From a virus: 21,847 nt of DNA. A program made the position numbers and the translations under genes. Each line of letters starts with the position of its first letter. The first letter of the stretch is position 1. The DNA lies in IMG/VR virus record IMGVR_UViG_3300013102_000082, positions 1-21,847 of that record. One strand, 5' to 3'. The notes beneath the pieces are model-generated. The model worked only from the letters and a program-made list of their open reading frames with translations. It was not told the origin of the DNA and made no database searches. Below are positions 12,710-18,959 of the stretch, piece after piece.

Positions 12710-12751
12710 TTGTTAACTGCCCAAATGGTTGCTATTTTTTCCATATGGGAA
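12710..12751 (+). promoter_or_regulatory. repressor promoter with operator over the start codon; probable leaderless mRNA
   Basis: -35 TTGTTA (12710-12715), 17-base spacer, -10 TATTTT (12733-12738) puts the start site at about 12745, the A of the repressor ATG. There is no SD. The reversed operator TTCCATATGGGAA (12739-12751) overlaps the start site and ATG, so the promoter can be shut by its own product or by the Cro-like protein. Confidence 0.65.
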
Positions 12752-12999
12752 CTTACGGGAATGACATTCAGGCGGCCATCGCAGCGCAGATCAAGGCTGA
12801 GATGGGCGCCAAGGGCTGGAAGCAAGCCGACCTGGCGAAAGCTACCAGCATGCAGGGAAGCACGCTCTACCGCTACCTCGCCGGCGCACGTGACATCCCG
12901 TTGCCCGTAATGGCTGACATTGCGACCGCGCTGGGCATGGACATTATTGAACTTGCCCAGCGCGCACAGCGCCGCCTAGATGGCAAGGACGTCAGCTAA
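12745..12999 (+). CDS. XRE-family immunity repressor candidate, 84 aa
   Basis: KGWKQADLAKATSMQGSTLY, YLAGARDIPLPVMADIATAL and GMDIIELAQRAQRRL form a full Cro/C1-type HTH domain with a short helical tail. It has no peptidase or dimer domain of the classical CI kind, so it is a small repressor as in many actinophages. It is read opposite to the lytic operon and shares operators with it. The start at ATG 12745 seems leaderless. The 3' end overlaps the convergent gene at 12976 by 24 bases. Confidence 0.8.
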   Translation: MGTYGNDIQAAIAAQIKAEMGAKGWKQADLAKATSMQGSTLYRYLAGARDIPLPVMADIATALGMDIIELAQRAQRRLDGKDVS

Positions 13000-13438: not shown

Positions 13439-13717
13439 ATGGTCATGCCTGCCGTAAAGCAACCAGAATCGGGACCACTCGCGAAGGCCTTCGCCGGGGA
13501 GGTCCGCGCCGCCCTTGCGCGCCGCCGGATCACCGCTAAGCAGCTGGCGAGTGCTACAGGTCTATCTCCTACCTATGTGAACAAGCGTCTCCGCGATGAG
13601 GCCCCGTTCACCCTCAACGATGTCGAAGTGATCTGTGACAAGCTCGACGCGGACTCGGAGGGTTTCCGGGCAGCAGCAGCCAAGGCGCTGCGTGAGGCCG
13701 GCGCTGACGACGAATAA
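13439..13717 (+). CDS. second XRE-family regulator, 92 aa
   Basis: ITAKQLASATGLSPTYVNKR, then FTLNDVEVICDKLDADSEGF, is a C1-type HTH. Two starts are in frame: ATG 13439 and ATG 13445. A -10-like TAGATT at 13433-13438 would start RNA at about 13445, which favours a leaderless MPAVKQ start; no -35 or SD is convincing. It converges on the integrase with a shared terminator between. It could be the main immunity repressor, or a partner of the 84-aa one. Confidence 0.75.
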   Translation: MVMPAVKQPESGPLAKAFAGEVRAALARRRITAKQLASATGLSPTYVNKRLRDEAPFTLNDVEVICDKLDADSEGFRAAAAKALREAGADDE

Positions 13718-13768: not shown

Positions 13769-15070
13769 CTATTGGGTTAGTTGTGGGGTCAGTAGCTTGG
13801 AGATGGATTCCATGCCTTCACGCATGCGTTGGCGGTGCACCTGGGAGCGGGTGCGGTAGTCGCGGGACATTGCCCGGGACGAGTGGCCGAGGATCATAGG
13901 TATGAGGTCTTCAGGGACGCCGGCGTAGTAGAGCAGGTCGGCCATGGTGTGTCGGGAGCCATGGAGGTTGACGTCTTCGGGGAGCCCGGCGCTAATGAGT
14001 ACGGCTTTCCATCGCTTGGATGCCCGGTCTGGGTCGTAGGGTCGGTCGTCGCCGAACTCGCTGAAGACCAGCCCTTCTGTGCGACCTGCGACTGCTAGGC
14101 CGAGGAAGGAGCGGAGCGGTTCGACGTTGGGGATGATTCGCCAGCCGGCGCTGGACTTGGGGCGGGTCAGGTAGAGAGTGCCGCGGAGGTGACGATATTC
14201 GAAGTCATCCGGGGCTGACTTGATGTCCTTGATGCGTTGGAGCTGCCATGAGAAGTCGATCTCTTCGCCGATGCGGTCGCATTCGAGTCCGAGGACTTCG
14301 CCGCGTCGTCCGCCGGTGAGCAGGTACGCTGCCCAGAGTGGCCCGTCATCGAGTGTGGCGAGGTGCGCCAGGAGTTGGATTGCTTCGTCTAGCTCCAATG
14401 CCTTCTGTTCGGTCTTGCGGGCTTTGGGCCGGTCAACGAGATCACAGACGTTCCGGCGCAGCTTCTTCTCCTTGACTGCTTGCTCGAGCGCGGATGAGAG
14501 CACGTTGTGGGCCAGTAGCGTGTAGGTGCTGGATAACGTGGGGAGCTCGTCCGGCCATTCTTGCTCGGGCTTGCCCTTGAGAGATTCCGGCCACTTCGCC
14601 GGGTCAAGGTCTTTGACGACGTCGGCCCACTTCGCCCGGGGGATTCCTTTGAGGTGTTCACGGTCGCGCCTGTTCTTGGGCATGGCGCGCATAGTGGCGT
14701 GAAGCTTGCGGACGTGGTCGGCGCTCAGCTTCTCCATCTTGGTCTTGCCGATCGCGGGGATGATGTAGTTGTTGATGACACCCCGATAGCCTTCCATGGT
14801 CTTGGGCCGGACGTCCTTGGGTGCGATGTCATCACGCCAGATGGCAAGCCAGTCGCCAAGGGTAGTTGCGCCATTGAGTAGGTCGCCGTGCTCGGCTAAC
14901 TCGGCTTTGAGTTTGCGCATCTCCGCGACGAGTTTTCCACGGTCCTTCCTGCGGATAACTTTGCGGATCTGCTTGCCATTGTCATCCCAGCCAAGCGTTA
15001 AAGCGCCGGCCCACATGCCGTCTTTTTGCCGGTAGATACTGCCGTCTCCGTTGGCCTTCTTCTCTGCCAT
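13769..15070 (-). CDS. int: tyrosine-recombinase integrase
   Basis: A 433-aa phage integrase that recombines attP with a host tRNA gene. The N-terminal arm-binding domain spans about residues 8-60 (GSIYRQKDGMWAGALTLGW), and a SAM-like core-binding domain follows (LGDWLAIWRDDIAPKDVRPK). Catalytic residues visible are R255 (TGGRRGEVLGL), K305 (RPKSSAG), H370 and R373 (NLHGSRH), H396 (ILGHSS) and Y405 (SRDYRT). About 45 residues (131-178) with an unusual EHLKGIPRAKWADVV stretch extend the core-binding domain. ATG 15070 has GAGGGG at SD distance. It reads away from attP, so its promoter lies among the arm sites, which allows self-regulation. Confidence 0.95.
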   Translation of the reverse strand: MAEKKANGDGSIYRQKDGMWAGALTLGWDDNGKQIRKVIRRKDRGKLVAEMRKLKAELAEHGDLLNGATTLGDWLAIWRDDIAPKDVRPKTMEGYRGVINNYIIPAIGKTKMEKLSADHVRKLHATMRAMPKNRRDREHLKGIPRAKWADVVKDLDPAKWPESLKGKPEQEWPDELPTLSSTYTLLAHNVLSSALEQAVKEKKLRRNVCDLVDRPKARKTEQKALELDEAIQLLAHLATLDDGPLWAAYLLTGGRRGEVLGLECDRIGEEIDFSWQLQRIKDIKSAPDDFEYRHLRGTLYLTRPKSSAGWRIIPNVEPLRSFLGLAVAGRTEGLVFSEFGDDRPYDPDRASKRWKAVLISAGLPEDVNLHGSRHTMADLLYYAGVPEDLIPMILGHSSRAMSRDYRTRSQVHRQRMREGMESISKLLTPQLTQ

Positions 15071-15799: not shown

Positions 15800-15946
15800 G
15801 TGGAAGTTATCTTGACCATTGAGAATGCGGCCGGCGAACAGGGCAGCGTGCAAGCATCTGGAGCCGATTACGCGGAAGCCTATGCTGCGGCCCGGGCACT
15901 CATCCCCGAAGACTGCAAAGCCATCGTCATCCGCACTGACAGTTAA
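15800..15946 (+). CDS. small hypothetical protein, 48 aa
   Basis: VEVILTIENAAGEQGSVQAS, then YAEAYAAARALIPEDCKAI and VIRTDS, matches a pattern I recall from actinophage small proteins: a strand, G-S-V, A-x-x-Y-x-x-A, A-L-I-P-E, ending I-R-T-D. GTG 15800 starts the conserved part; in-frame ATG 15773 with GGGAGG upstream would add nine less typical residues. It runs opposite to the 123-aa gene and the 5' ends may overlap. A strong hairpin follows. Confidence 0.6.
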   Translation: MEVILTIENAAGEQGSVQASGADYAEAYAAARALIPEDCKAIVIRTDS

Positions 15947-15984: not shown

Positions 15985-16025
15985 ATTACGTTGCGGCACT
16001 AAGCCGGTCTTATGTTGCCCTTGAC

Positions 16026-16105
16026 TTGCAACACTGCGACGTCGTGCTTAGGGTCCACGCACGAAGCCTTATGATTAGGTCAATCCGTTTACTTCCTTGG
16101 GGGAC
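16026..16105 (+). promoter_or_regulatory. promoter region of the lipoprotein gene
   Basis: TTGCAA (16026-16031), 17 bases, TAGGGT (16049-16054) is one possible promoter. A second -10-like box, TATGAT (16070-16075), would start RNA near 16082. GGGGGA at 16099-16104 is the SD for the TTG start. An own promoter fits expression from the prophage, apart from the late operon read on the other strand. Confidence 0.5.
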
Positions 16106-16107
16106 TC

Positions 16108-16962
16108 TTGCGCCGTAATCGCTTCCTTGCCGCCGCCGTTCTGGCCGCGACCGTTGCCGTCTCTACCGGCTGCGCATCATCCCCACCGCCAGTCTCCCAG
16201 CAGGTCCAGGACTACTACGACGCGAACAAGGACCGCCCCTTGGGGGTAACCCCCGGCGCCTCCCCCGCGAGTGCAAGCGCGGCTGCAAAACCAAGCGTGG
16301 CCCCTATCCCCGTGGGCTTTGACCTTGCCAGCATCAAAGCAGCCCTCGCCAGCAACCCAGCAGTCACCATCAGCGTTCTGGGTGACTCAACCGGCAACTC
16401 CACCGGTGAGTGGGTAGACCTTTGGGGCAAGCACCTCTCCACTACAGCGTCAGTGACAATCCACCTGTGGGACCAGGACAAGGAATCATGGCGCCCAAAC
16501 GCGACAGCGTACCCCGGCCCTGAAGGCCGGACCATCGAGATCTGGAATGGCTCCCAGCCGGGGTCCACCGCTGACTATCCTTCTTCGCGGCTCAAGGTCA
16601 TGCAGCCGAACAAACCCGACTTCGTGATTCTCAACTTCGGGCACAACGGCAGCGCCGGTGCAGTCGCTTCGCAGCTCCAGCAGACAACAGATGCCGTATC
16701 CGCCCAGTGGGGCGGCAAGCTTCCCACCGTAGCCATCCTTCAGAACGCTGCTGGCGCCCCACGAACGATGCAAACTGACGCGAACCAGAACGTGCTCAAG
16801 GCGTGGGCAGTCAGCACGGGTATTCCAACCATTGACGTGCGCTCAGCCTTTGACGCTCTCCCCGACCTGAAGGCATATCTGGTAGACGACGGGCTGGGCG
16901 TCCACCCAAACCCCGCCGGTCAGCAGATCTGGGCAGACACCGTCGTAGCCACTCTGGGCTAA
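16108..16962 (+). CDS. secreted SGNH-hydrolase lipoprotein (lysogenic-conversion candidate)
   Basis: A 284-aa protein, TTG start with GGGGGA upstream. The N-terminus has two Arg, a hydrophobic run and the lipobox VSTGC (C22), so it should be anchored outside the membrane. A Pro/Ala/Ser linker follows to about residue 68. SGNH blocks: GDSTGN (S94), LNFGHNGS (N180) and GVHPNPAG (H266). The Asp partner is five residues before the His (D261) rather than three. Such enzymes remove acyl groups from sugars or lipids. It is alone on the plus strand and meets the tail fibre, also an SGNH enzyme, by a four-base overlap. It is likely a moron that changes the host surface; the substrate is unknown. Confidence 0.85.
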   Translation: MRRNRFLAAAVLAATVAVSTGCASSPPPVSQQVQDYYDANKDRPLGVTPGASPASASAAAKPSVAPIPVGFDLASIKAALASNPAVTISVLGDSTGNSTGEWVDLWGKHLSTTASVTIHLWDQDKESWRPNATAYPGPEGRTIEIWNGSQPGSTADYPSSRLKVMQPNKPDFVILNFGHNGSAGAVASQLQQTTDAVSAQWGGKLPTVAILQNAAGAPRTMQTDANQNVLKAWAVSTGIPTIDVRSAFDALPDLKAYLVDDGLGVHPNPAGQQIWADTVVATLG

Positions 16963-18959
16963 GCCTCTCGCAGCATCACCAAGGGAAGCTTGCCTGTTGC
17001 TGTCGAACCAAGAGCCACGGTTGACGGGATCGGGAAAATGCCACCCACCACGCGTGAGTATCCAGCCCCGGTGACAAGCTTGAGCAAGCTGGACGTTACG
17101 TTGAGGCCCTTATACGTCGCTGTGGTGTTGTCAGCGGCGAGCACGATGTAGTACGTCTGCCCGGCCAGCAAGGACACCGCTGGGGACACGGTCTCGGCCA
17201 CGTTAGTGCTCGGCGCCGGCCAAGCCGTGGAACCCTTGGACCACAGACGTGCACCCGCCGAGTCAAGTACGGCGATGTCATAGTTGCCAGCCTGCACAGT
17301 TCCGGTAACCCATTCCAATACAGCTAGGTTGATGTTCCGGTGCGGCTTCACCGGCATAACGACACCGAGGTTAGCGATGCCGATCACTGCCGAGTTTGTT
17401 CCGGCAACCGCCAAGGCAGCCACCACAGGGTTACTGCCTACCGTGGAGCAAAAGTCGATCTGCGTCAACGAGGGATCACCCGCCGGGCCTGTAGCGCCAG
17501 CCTGCCCCATGCTGCCCTTACGAGGCAGCACGCCAGGCACCACCCACACACGATCGAATGTCACGTCCGCTGCGGCATTGGCTGCGCTGTCCGCCCAAAG
17601 AGTCAGCCGCAGGTAAGCGGCGCCTGGGCTTGGTGTGAACGTCAGCACGCGGTAGTGGAACCCATCGCGGGCGTAAGCGTAGTTCCCAGAGTTCACTGCG
17701 CTCTGAACGCCGTCTGTCCATCCGAACCGGCCCTGTGTAACGGGATCTGTCGGAGTCTTTGTATCAACGCGGACGCGCACCACGGCGGTGATTGGCTTGC
17801 CTGCCCATTTGGCCCTGAAGGCGGCGTCAAAGGGCATGCGGATGTAGGCTGCAGAACTGCCATCAACTGCCTGAACGCGGACACCATAGCCGTTCCCTGT
17901 GACGTTCTCGAAGTACCCAGCCCGGACATCCTTGGTCACGGTTGCGTTGTTGGCTTCCCACCCTGCTGGAAGGGTGCTGGTCCAGTCGGAGAAGTTGCCG
18001 TTGGGGATGAGCTGATCCGCATTGGTTTCGATGGCGCTGACCTGCTGGGCGCGGATGGCACCAGTGTCCTTGCTGTAGGTCCAGAAGGGCAGTTCCAACT
18101 GGGCCATGAGCAGTGAACCGTTGGGAGAAGGCGCATCGGCCGAGGTCGTCGGGTGGATGCCGTCAGCCTTCATGTACTGCGTGAGCGTGCCGCCAAGGTT
18201 CTTGATGGCTGACAGGAACAGCCTGTGAAGGTCGATGACTCCGTAACCGCGCAGGGCTGCGATCTGGGCGTATACCCGGTTCTTCCTCGCCATGTCATTG
18301 TCGTCGCGGTTCGGGATTTGCAGGACGCATACGAGATCCGCGAACGGGAGATCCTGCTTGATGGTCTCGGTGAACGCTAGGTACTGACCGCGCCAGTGTG
18401 CATCCGACGAACCGCCTGACGTCGTGCCCTCATTCTTGCCATGGAGCAACACGATGAGATCTGGGTTCGTCGCGATCAGCACCGGGTAGCGGGACCCCTG
18501 CGCGTAGGAAGCATTCATGCCTGAGACCGCAAAGTTCCACACGTGGGTGACGAATGGGCCGCCGGCGTTGCCGGTTCCCGTGCCGGTTTGCACTGTCACA
18601 GGTGCGATCCACGTTGCGCCGGTGCTGGGATCGATCAGGTGATAGATGTAGCTGCGTGACGGGTTGAGTGCGGCCCGGGCCTGGAGCAGGAGGAAAATGT
18701 GCTCAAGCTGCTCATTGCCGATTGAGTCACCAATCCACAGCTCGCTCAGGTCGCGCAGGTCTTCAGCTTCGAGTGACAAGTAGCGGTGAGTTCCAGCGGC
18801 CGCAGTGGCAGGGCCGGGCTTGAGTGCGAACGCGTCCTTCATGGCTTCCGCTGAGGGGCCATAAGTGGCATTAAGTGCCGCGTCTTGGAGGCGGGGTGGG
18901 AGGCTGGCGTCAACAACCTTGCCATTGCTATCGACGATGGCCGTTTTGATGATGGGCAT
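16959..18959 (-). CDS. tail fibre / receptor-binding protein with SGNH-esterase domain, 666 aa
   Basis: ATG 18959 with AAGGAG seven bases upstream. Residues 1-60 are a tail-attachment region. Residues about 70-290 are an SGNH hydrolase: ELWIGDSIGN (S79), AVSGMNASY (G148), LLHGKNEG (N176) and DGIHPTTSAD (D266, H269). Residues about 312-480 (LIPNGNFSDWTSTLPAGWEA, TFDRVWVVPG) look like a jelly-roll carbohydrate-binding module. A short GATGPAGDP collagen-like link leads to a C-terminal beta domain. It probably binds and trims an acylated surface sugar polymer during adsorption. Large for a minor tail protein and placed after the lysis genes. Confidence 0.85.
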   Translation of the reverse strand: MPIIKTAIVDSNGKVVDASLPPRLQDAALNATYGPSAEAMKDAFALKPGPATAAAGTHRYLSLEAEDLRDLSELWIGDSIGNEQLEHIFLLLQARAALNPSRSYIYHLIDPSTGATWIAPVTVQTGTGTGNAGGPFVTHVWNFAVSGMNASYAQGSRYPVLIATNPDLIVLLHGKNEGTTSGGSSDAHWRGQYLAFTETIKQDLPFADLVCVLQIPNRDDNDMARKNRVYAQIAALRGYGVIDLHRLFLSAIKNLGGTLTQYMKADGIHPTTSADAPSPNGSLLMAQLELPFWTYSKDTGAIRAQQVSAIETNADQLIPNGNFSDWTSTLPAGWEANNATVTKDVRAGYFENVTGNGYGVRVQAVDGSSAAYIRMPFDAAFRAKWAGKPITAVVRVRVDTKTPTDPVTQGRFGWTDGVQSAVNSGNYAYARDGFHYRVLTFTPSPGAAYLRLTLWADSAANAAADVTFDRVWVVPGVLPRKGSMGQAGATGPAGDPSLTQIDFCSTVGSNPVVAALAVAGTNSAVIGIANLGVVMPVKPHRNINLAVLEWVTGTVQAGNYDIAVLDSAGARLWSKGSTAWPAPSTNVAETVSPAVSLLAGQTYYIVLAADNTTATYKGLNVTSSLLKLVTGAGYSRVVGGIFPIPSTVALGSTATGKLPLVMLREA

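What the first reader, a model, noticed from the sequence alone, without database searches (positions are those of the whole stretch)
16108..18959. Two SGNH hydrolases back to back: tail fibre and a lipoprotein moron
The tail fibre (GDSIGN, HGKN, DGIHP) and the lone plus-strand lipoprotein (lipobox VSTGC, GDSTGN, FGHN, GVHP) carry the same enzyme fold and meet with a four-base overlap. SGNH enzymes in tail fibres usually deacylate receptor sugars. An anchored SGNH enzyme made by the prophage could strip the same groups from the host surface and block new phage of the same type. I know of no described system that pairs the two in this way; it is inference from domains, place and separate promoter.
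Basis: partly seen in the sequence, partly recalled or inferred. Interest (0 to 1): 0.8.

Follow-up and report, generated by a model that had tools for sequence, protein, structure and literature searches.

The report
Tail-fibre esterase with matching surface enzyme
A temperate soil phage carries an esterase-type enzyme in its receptor-binding tail fibre and, directly opposite, a cell-surface enzyme of the same fold; related phages keep the two genes together and swap them as one block, as expected if the second enzyme alters the host surface so that sister phages cannot attach.

Summary
A 284-aa SGNH lipoprotein (16108-16962, +) meets a 666-aa SGNH tail fibre (16959-18959, -) tail to tail with a 4-base overlap.

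The pair recurs: in 14 of 15 non-redundant phage or prophage loci the anchored SGNH is convergent with an SGNH tail gene; the exception, Mbo4, has a pectate-lyase tail. In other phages unrelated SGNH subfamilies, AT3-SGNH O-acetyltransferases or Wzy polymerases fill the same slot. In a tail-blind sample of Arthrobacter phages, SGNH tails go with SGNH slot genes (5/6 against 0/6, p=0.008). Related phages exchange the tail's receptor part and the slot gene as one block (2.6 kb at 100% identity, flanks 58-91%). A conserved element (15997-16014) precedes the slot.

The anchored enzyme is not a copy of the tail domain; its kin are host enzymes beside AT3 and polysaccharide genes.

Best reading: an actinophage counterpart of the P22 gtr and Sf6 oac conversion slots. 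The prophage's anchored enzyme edits acyl groups on the glycopolymer the tail fibre uses, and so excludes sister phages. Removal rather than addition is favoured but untested. New variant of a known kind.

The parts
16108..16962 (+). Anchored SGNH lipoprotein (slot gene), 284 aa, TTG start
   Evidence: AF2 model pLDDT 84, SGNH domain mostly above 90
16108..16173 (+). Signal peptide with lipobox VSTGC; C22 codon 16171-16173
   Evidence: sequence; same N-terminal module (TGCAS..PPPVS..V/I...Y) in JABBNV and BrayBeast
16363..16959 (+). SGNH domain, aa 86-284: S94 (16387-16389), N180 (16645-16647), H266 (16903-16905)
16959..18959 (-). SGNH tail fibre, 666 aa
   Evidence: phrog_15641 2e-192; 79% identical to Gordonia phage Obliviate gp31
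18090..18761 (-). SGNH domain of the tail fibre, about aa 67-290: S79, N176, D266/H269
16959..16962 (.). 4-base overlap of the two stop codons
15954..15985 (.). 13-bp G+C-rich hairpin, terminator-like on the - strand
15997..16014 (+). Conserved slot element CACTAAGCCGGTCTTATG
   Evidence: once in window, expected 0.06; same place and orientation in 10 or more Arthrobacter phages
16070..16104 (+). TATGAT (-10-like, 16070-16075) and GGGGGA Shine-Dalgarno (16099-16104)
   Evidence: sequence; inference; GGGGGA recurs upstream of homologues
15800..15946 (+). 48-aa ORF before the hairpin, resembling 47-aa RootBeer gp26 and Shoya gp30
   Evidence: weak similarity by eye
13769..15070 (-). Tyrosine integrase
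12745..12999 (+). HTH repressor-like gene, on the slot gene's strand
13439..13717 (+). Second HTH regulator

Best explanation
The lipoprotein gene sits in a lysogenic-conversion slot at the end of the late operon, convergent with the receptor-binding tail gene and next to the integrase and repressor region. In the lysogen it is made from its own promoter (inferred) and held on the outside of the membrane by its lipid anchor. There its SGNH domain edits acyl esters, most likely removing O-acetyl groups, on the cell-wall-associated glycopolymer that the SGNH tail fibre recognises and deacylates. The edited surface no longer takes up sister phages with the same tail fibre, which excludes superinfection at the adsorption step and may spare released progeny from binding lysogens. 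Because editor and tail fibre must match the same polymer, phages exchange them as one cassette. Shown: the genes, domains, anchor signal, recurrence, block exchange, conserved element, and host kin in polysaccharide loci. Inferred: expression, substrate, direction of the reaction, and exclusion.
For: Recurrence: window, RootBeer, Shoya, L008, L009, L010, L011, L013, L015, L027, L035, L036, L037 and G543 (L078) pair the anchored SGNH with a convergent SGNH tail gene, mostly with 4-base overlaps or a few bases' gap. Independent versions: TM-anchored or lipoprotein 'type B' SGNH beside SGNH tails in Bridgette, Judy, RadFad, Isolde, BrayBeast, and a TM-anchored SGNH in Belphegor; a third SGNH type in Anekin and L032. 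The same slot holds other surface-modifying genes: AT3-SGNH in Hum25 and Peas, Wzy_C in Maja and Zucker. Block exchange: Bridgette, RadFad and Isolde are 100% identical across slot and tail C-terminus inside 58-91% flanks; similarity of RadFad with Anekin, and of Shoya with BrayBeast, stops before the slot and resumes at the tail N-terminus. Tail-blind sample: 5/6 against 0/6, p=0.008. Anchored and tail distances correlate (Mantel r=0.45, p=0.007, 11 pairs). Host kin lie beside AT3 (9/10 Rhodococcus-family loci within 8 kb) and glycosyltransferase/Wzz genes. Fold hits are acetyl esterases, and for the tail also G7C gp63.1. Precedent: Sf6 oac and P22 gtrABC occupy the same convergent slot and block phage (PMC9558356, PMC10883804). 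Klebsiella prophage SGNH tail fibres are active esterases (PMC13123978).
Against: No activity, expression or adsorption data. The canonical -3 Asp is missing in the window protein. Obliviate has a 79% identical tail fibre with no slot enzyme, and several SGNH-tailed Gordonia and Rhodococcus phages have none. Persistence has a divergent SGNH-like tail and an empty slot. Mbo4 pairs the enzyme with a pectate lyase. The tail-blind sample is small and its phages are related.
Confidence: 0.62

Rival explanations
1. The anchored SGNH is an acyltransferase rather than an esterase: it takes acyl groups from a host AT3 protein (two-component, like PatA/PatB or AlgI/AlgJ) and adds them to the receptor polymer, as Oac of Sf6 does.
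For: In Hum25 an SGNH domain 67% identical to a stand-alone one (L011) is fused to AT3. Host homologues lie near AT3 genes. SGNH domains are essential for transfer in AT3-SGNH proteins (PMC9558356). PatB is among the fold hits of the tail model.
Against: Most phage copies have no AT3 partner. Most AT3 genes beside host copies already carry their own SGNH domain (7 of 9). Best fold matches are esterases.
Confidence: 0.2
2. The enzyme acts in the lytic cycle as a receptor-destroying release factor, keeping progeny from binding debris and already infected cells.
For: Same fold class as the tail fibre enzyme; Belphegor has such a pair within its structural genes.
Against: The gene lies on the strand opposite the late operon and beside integrase and repressor in most cases; late transcription would run antisense through it.
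Confidence: 0.1
3. It is an ordinary fitness moron: a host-derived surface enzyme parked at a permissive site, with no link to the tail fibre's specificity.
For: The slot holds varied genes and is often empty; host homologues exist.
Against: Tail and slot are exchanged as one block and their enzyme classes match.
Confidence: 0.15
4. The lipoprotein is a duplicated tail-fibre domain or a virion part.
For: phrog_15641 (tail fibre) also matches it at 4e-27.
Against: All tail SGNHs fall on one side of a 100% SH-aLRT branch and all anchored ones on the other; identity to its own tail (mean 25%) is no higher than to other tails.
Confidence: 0.03

Closest known systems
Sf6 oac / P22 and epsilon34 gtrABC serotype-conversion slots
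   Same: Surface-modifying gene convergent with the receptor-binding tailspike gene, between it and int, with its own annotated promoter; P22 gtrABC is prophage-expressed and blocks adsorption (PMC10883804), Sf6 acetylation hinders its own tailspike (PMC9558356)
   Different: Gram-positive hosts and a different, endolysin-bearing tail operon; the window's modifier is an anchored SGNH protein of the tail enzyme's own fold, not AT3 or a glucosyltransferase; no lysogen data
SGNH tail-fibre deacetylases (G7C gp63.1; Klebsiella prophage RBPs)
   Same: SGNH domain in the tail fibre; G7C gp63.1 (4qnl) is a fold hit of the tail model
   Different: These reports concern the virion enzyme; in the passages read I found no description of a paired anchored enzyme
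AT3-SGNH acyltransferases (OafA/OafB/OatA)
   Same: Extracytoplasmic SGNH next to the membrane acting on surface sugars; Hum25 fuses the same SGNH type to AT3
   Different: The window protein has no AT3 domain and a lipid anchor

Membership tests
SGNH/GDSL hydrolase superfamily | Pfam match and block I Ser, II Gly, III Asn, V His | tested here: met
   PF13472 above cutoff; S94, G152, N180, H266 conserved
SGNH/GDSL hydrolase superfamily | Catalytic Asp at DxxH (-3) | tested here: not met
   L263 at -3 in the lipoprotein (D260/D261 nearby); met in the tail fibre (D266). Some SGNH enzymes work as Ser-His dyads (own knowledge), so superfamily membership is not in doubt but activity needs testing
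Bacterial lipoprotein | N-terminal signal peptide ending in a lipobox Cys | tested here: met
   VSTGC fits the relaxed pattern; strict LAGC/LTGC in homologues; lipidation itself not tested
P22/Sf6-type conversion slot | Gene convergent with the receptor-binding tail gene, between it and integrase | tested here: met
P22/Sf6-type conversion slot | Product modifies a surface polysaccharide | not testable with these tools
   Indirect only: host kin in polysaccharide loci, AT3 fusion
P22/Sf6-type conversion slot | Expressed from the prophage and blocks superinfection | not testable with these tools
   No expression or adsorption data; no defence-system model hit in PADLOC
P22/Sf6-type conversion slot | Homology to Oac or GtrABC | tested here: not met
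   No AT3 or Gtr match; it may work like them, it is not a homologue
AT3-SGNH acyltransferase | AT3 membrane domain or partner encoded | tested here: not met
   No AT3 match in the lipoprotein; none among the window genes scanned, but not every gene was scanned and the 21.8-kb record is a fragment
SGNH tail-fibre deacetylase | Tail gene with intact SGNH motifs | tested here: met
   activity not tested

The most novel reading that the evidence does not exclude
Temperate actinophages use a matched 'editor plus reader' allele: the virion carries an SGNH esterase that needs an acylated wall polymer, and the prophage makes an anchored SGNH enzyme that removes the same acyl groups, so lysogens are invisible to any phage with that tail fibre. 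The two travel as one exchangeable cassette bounded by a conserved DNA element.
Probability: 0.4. Interest if true: 0.78.

Novelty: new variant of a known kind. Interest (0 to 1): 0.64.

Why it matters
If true, receptor editing by prophages, best known from O-antigens of Gram-negative hosts, also shapes phage competition on Gram-positive actinobacteria. The tail fibre would then predict the superinfection-exclusion gene beside it. Because many Arthrobacter globiformis phages carry matched and mismatched cassettes, the exclusion specificity of each can be tested directly. It would also assign a function to proteins now annotated only as 'esterase', 'lipase', 'hydrolase' or (mis-started) 'hypothetical'.

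Tried and rejected
Single-protein scan of IMG/VR with the lipoprotein: no relative; an alignment was needed. Duplication of the tail domain: rejected by the tree and by equal identity to own and foreign tails. Conserved element as a common host attB: not seen in 396 Actinomycetales genomes at exact match, so unlikely but not excluded. Lysin-B role: Arthrobacter has no mycolates and its phages lack lysin B (PMC5513430). Known family names: no PADLOC hit and no NCBIfam hit for the two window proteins. My first count treated Persistence as non-SGNH; its tail has divergent GDSY/DGVH motifs, so it was moved to the SGNH class, which weakens the test to 5/6 against 0/6. Three tool calls failed on wrong frames or handles or a script error (the last lines).

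Full report
OBSERVATION. The plus-strand ORF 16108-16962 (284 aa, TTG start behind GGGGGA) and the minus-strand ORF 16959-18959 (666 aa) are convergent and share four bases. Both carry SGNH domains by Pfam and PHROGs. The window is a 21.8-kb virus record, classed as in IMG/VR, of a temperate actinophage with integrase and M23 endolysin and HTH repressor-like genes on the lipoprotein's strand. AlphaFold models give confident SGNH folds for both proteins. The nearest solved structures are acetyl esterases such as Axe2 for both and, for the tail, also the G7C gp63.1 tail fibre, Ape1 and PatB. One caution: the lipoprotein has Leu, not Asp, three residues before its catalytic His, a feature of the DDGxGVHP sequence shared with L027 and (as DGIGVHP) RootBeer.

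RECURRENCE. The anchored SGNH was found in isolated phages (RootBeer, Shoya, Mbo4), IMG/VR contigs (L008-L011, L013-L015, L027) and bacterial contigs or prophages (L035-L037, G543/L078). Counting Mbo4 and L014 once, there are 15 loci. In all of them the anchored gene is convergent with a tail gene, mostly with 4-base overlaps or a few bases' gap (largest gap seen about 58 bases, RootBeer). In 14 the tail protein has an SGNH domain; in Mbo4 it is a pectate lyase. The set was gathered by similarity to the lipoprotein, so the phages are not independent samples.

THE SLOT. Other phages fill the same position with other enzymes. Hum25 has AT3 fused to an SGNH domain 67% identical to the stand-alone SGNH of L011. 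Maja and Zucker have a Wzy_C polymerase (the Zucker match is just under the cut-off). Peas has AT3-SGNH plus a hexapeptide acetyltransferase. Bridgette, Judy, RadFad and Isolde have a different anchored SGNH ('type B') plus a small membrane protein, again beside an SGNH tail. Anekin and L032 have a third SGNH type and Belphegor a TM-anchored one. BrayBeast gp27 appears mis-started in its record: the upstream frame adds a lipoprotein signal and the linker PPPVSAKIQAAYEK, close to the window's PPPVSQQVQDYYDANK but carrying a type-B SGNH. So the same N-terminal module is seen with different SGNH domains.

IS IT MORE THAN CHANCE? To sample without regard to tails I took temperate Arthrobacter phages by integrase similarity and classed tail and slot. 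Merging the near-identical Bridgette-type cassettes into one lineage, five of six SGNH-tailed lineages (RootBeer, Shoya, BrayBeast, Bridgette type, Anekin; not Persistence) have a stand-alone SGNH in the slot. None of six others does (Peas, Zucker, Sarge, ArV2, Tiff81, Mufasa8, the last two without a recognised tail fibre there). Fisher p=0.008; 0.015 without RootBeer, the query; 0.04 if the two without a tail fibre are also dropped. Over 11 SGNH/SGNH pairs, distances among anchored domains and among tail domains correlate (Mantel r=0.45, p=0.007). Relatedness of the phages is not corrected for.

BLOCK EXCHANGE. The most telling evidence is recombination. Between Bridgette and RadFad or Isolde, the stretch from just before the SGNH-B gene to the tail gene's distal part is 100% identical over about 2.6 kb, while flanks are 58-91%; 35 phage records carry that SGNH-B protein at 99% identity or more. 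RadFad against Anekin: similarity stops at the conserved element upstream of the slot and resumes at the tail N-terminus. Shoya against BrayBeast, same genus, behaves alike, as does Bridgette against Peas. Slot gene and receptor-binding part of the tail thus change together.

CONSERVED ELEMENT. CACTTAACCGGTCTTAYG-like DNA occurs once in the window (15997-16014; 0.06 expected), next to a hairpin and upstream of the slot gene, and in the same place and orientation in RootBeer, Shoya, Hum25, Maja, Anekin, Bridgette, Judy, Peas, RadFad, Isolde, L009 and L114, although the slot genes are unrelated. It was not found in 396 Actinomycetales genomes. It may be a promoter or operator, a recombination joint, or both; this is inference.

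ORIGIN AND SUBSTRATE. In a tree of 67 domains all tail SGNHs lie on one side of a fully supported branch and all anchored SGNHs on the other. The phage anchored copies are mixed with host chromosomal ones, with at least three changes required by well-supported branches (one of the 'host' rows, L052, is the G543 prophage). Phages therefore seem to have taken the enzyme from hosts, or exchanged it with them, more than once. In the Rhodococcus family 9 of 10 host loci have an AT3 gene within 8 kb, most with a fused SGNH domain, and glycosyltransferase, Wzz and flippase genes are common nearby; several of these loci are orthologous, so independent cases are fewer, perhaps four. This points to O-acylated surface glycopolymers as substrate. 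Removal is favoured over addition because most phage copies lack AT3 and most neighbouring host AT3s already have their own SGNH; the Hum25 fusion keeps the transferase reading alive.

COMPARISON. P22 and Sf6 have the same architecture: tailspike gene, convergent gtrABC or oac, then int. GtrABC alters O-antigen to block adsorption (PMC10883804) and Sf6 acetylation hinders its own tailspike (PMC9558356). SGNH tail fibres of Klebsiella prophages are active esterases and 5-30% of prophages per K-locus encode predicted acetyltransferases (PMC13123978). What I did not find described, in limited full-text searches, is the same-fold pairing, its joint exchange, or this slot in actinophages. I file it as a new variant of a known kind.

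LIMITS. Everything about function is inference. SGNH-tailed phages without a slot enzyme exist (Obliviate, Dolores, Trogglehumper and others), so the pairing is common, not obligatory.

Noticed in passing
window 15997-16014: Conserved element CACTTAACCGGTCTTAYG upstream of unrelated slot genes in many Arthrobacter phages, with similarity between RadFad and Anekin ending right at it
   Followed up: partly
L105:10170-10875: BrayBeast gp27 appears mis-started: the upstream frame encodes a lipoprotein signal (LVLTGC) and a full type-B SGNH protein
   Followed up: partly
L036:9722-16146: Rhodococcus sp. 14-1411-2a has a tail-like SGNH gene and two anchored SGNH genes inside a polysaccharide locus (Wzz, WecG, glycosyltransferases, flippase)
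   Followed up: partly
L035 (JABBNV010000035.1): Contig labelled as an Acidobacteria MAG carries an actinophage-type tail/lysis/integrase region with the SGNH pair; possibly misbinned
   Followed up: no
L003:6740-8605; L009:8600-10438: SGNH domain of some tail fibres appears split between block I and block II by a large insert, LamG-like by eye
   Followed up: no
L005:5776-6714: Mbo4 slot SGNH has lost the block III Asn (FSHT instead of GHN), which may change its catalysis; it is also the one partner of a pectate-lyase tail
   Followed up: no
L100/L110/L111: A 2.6-kb tail plus slot cassette is 100% identical between phages of different genera and sizes, which implies very recent transfer
   Followed up: yes
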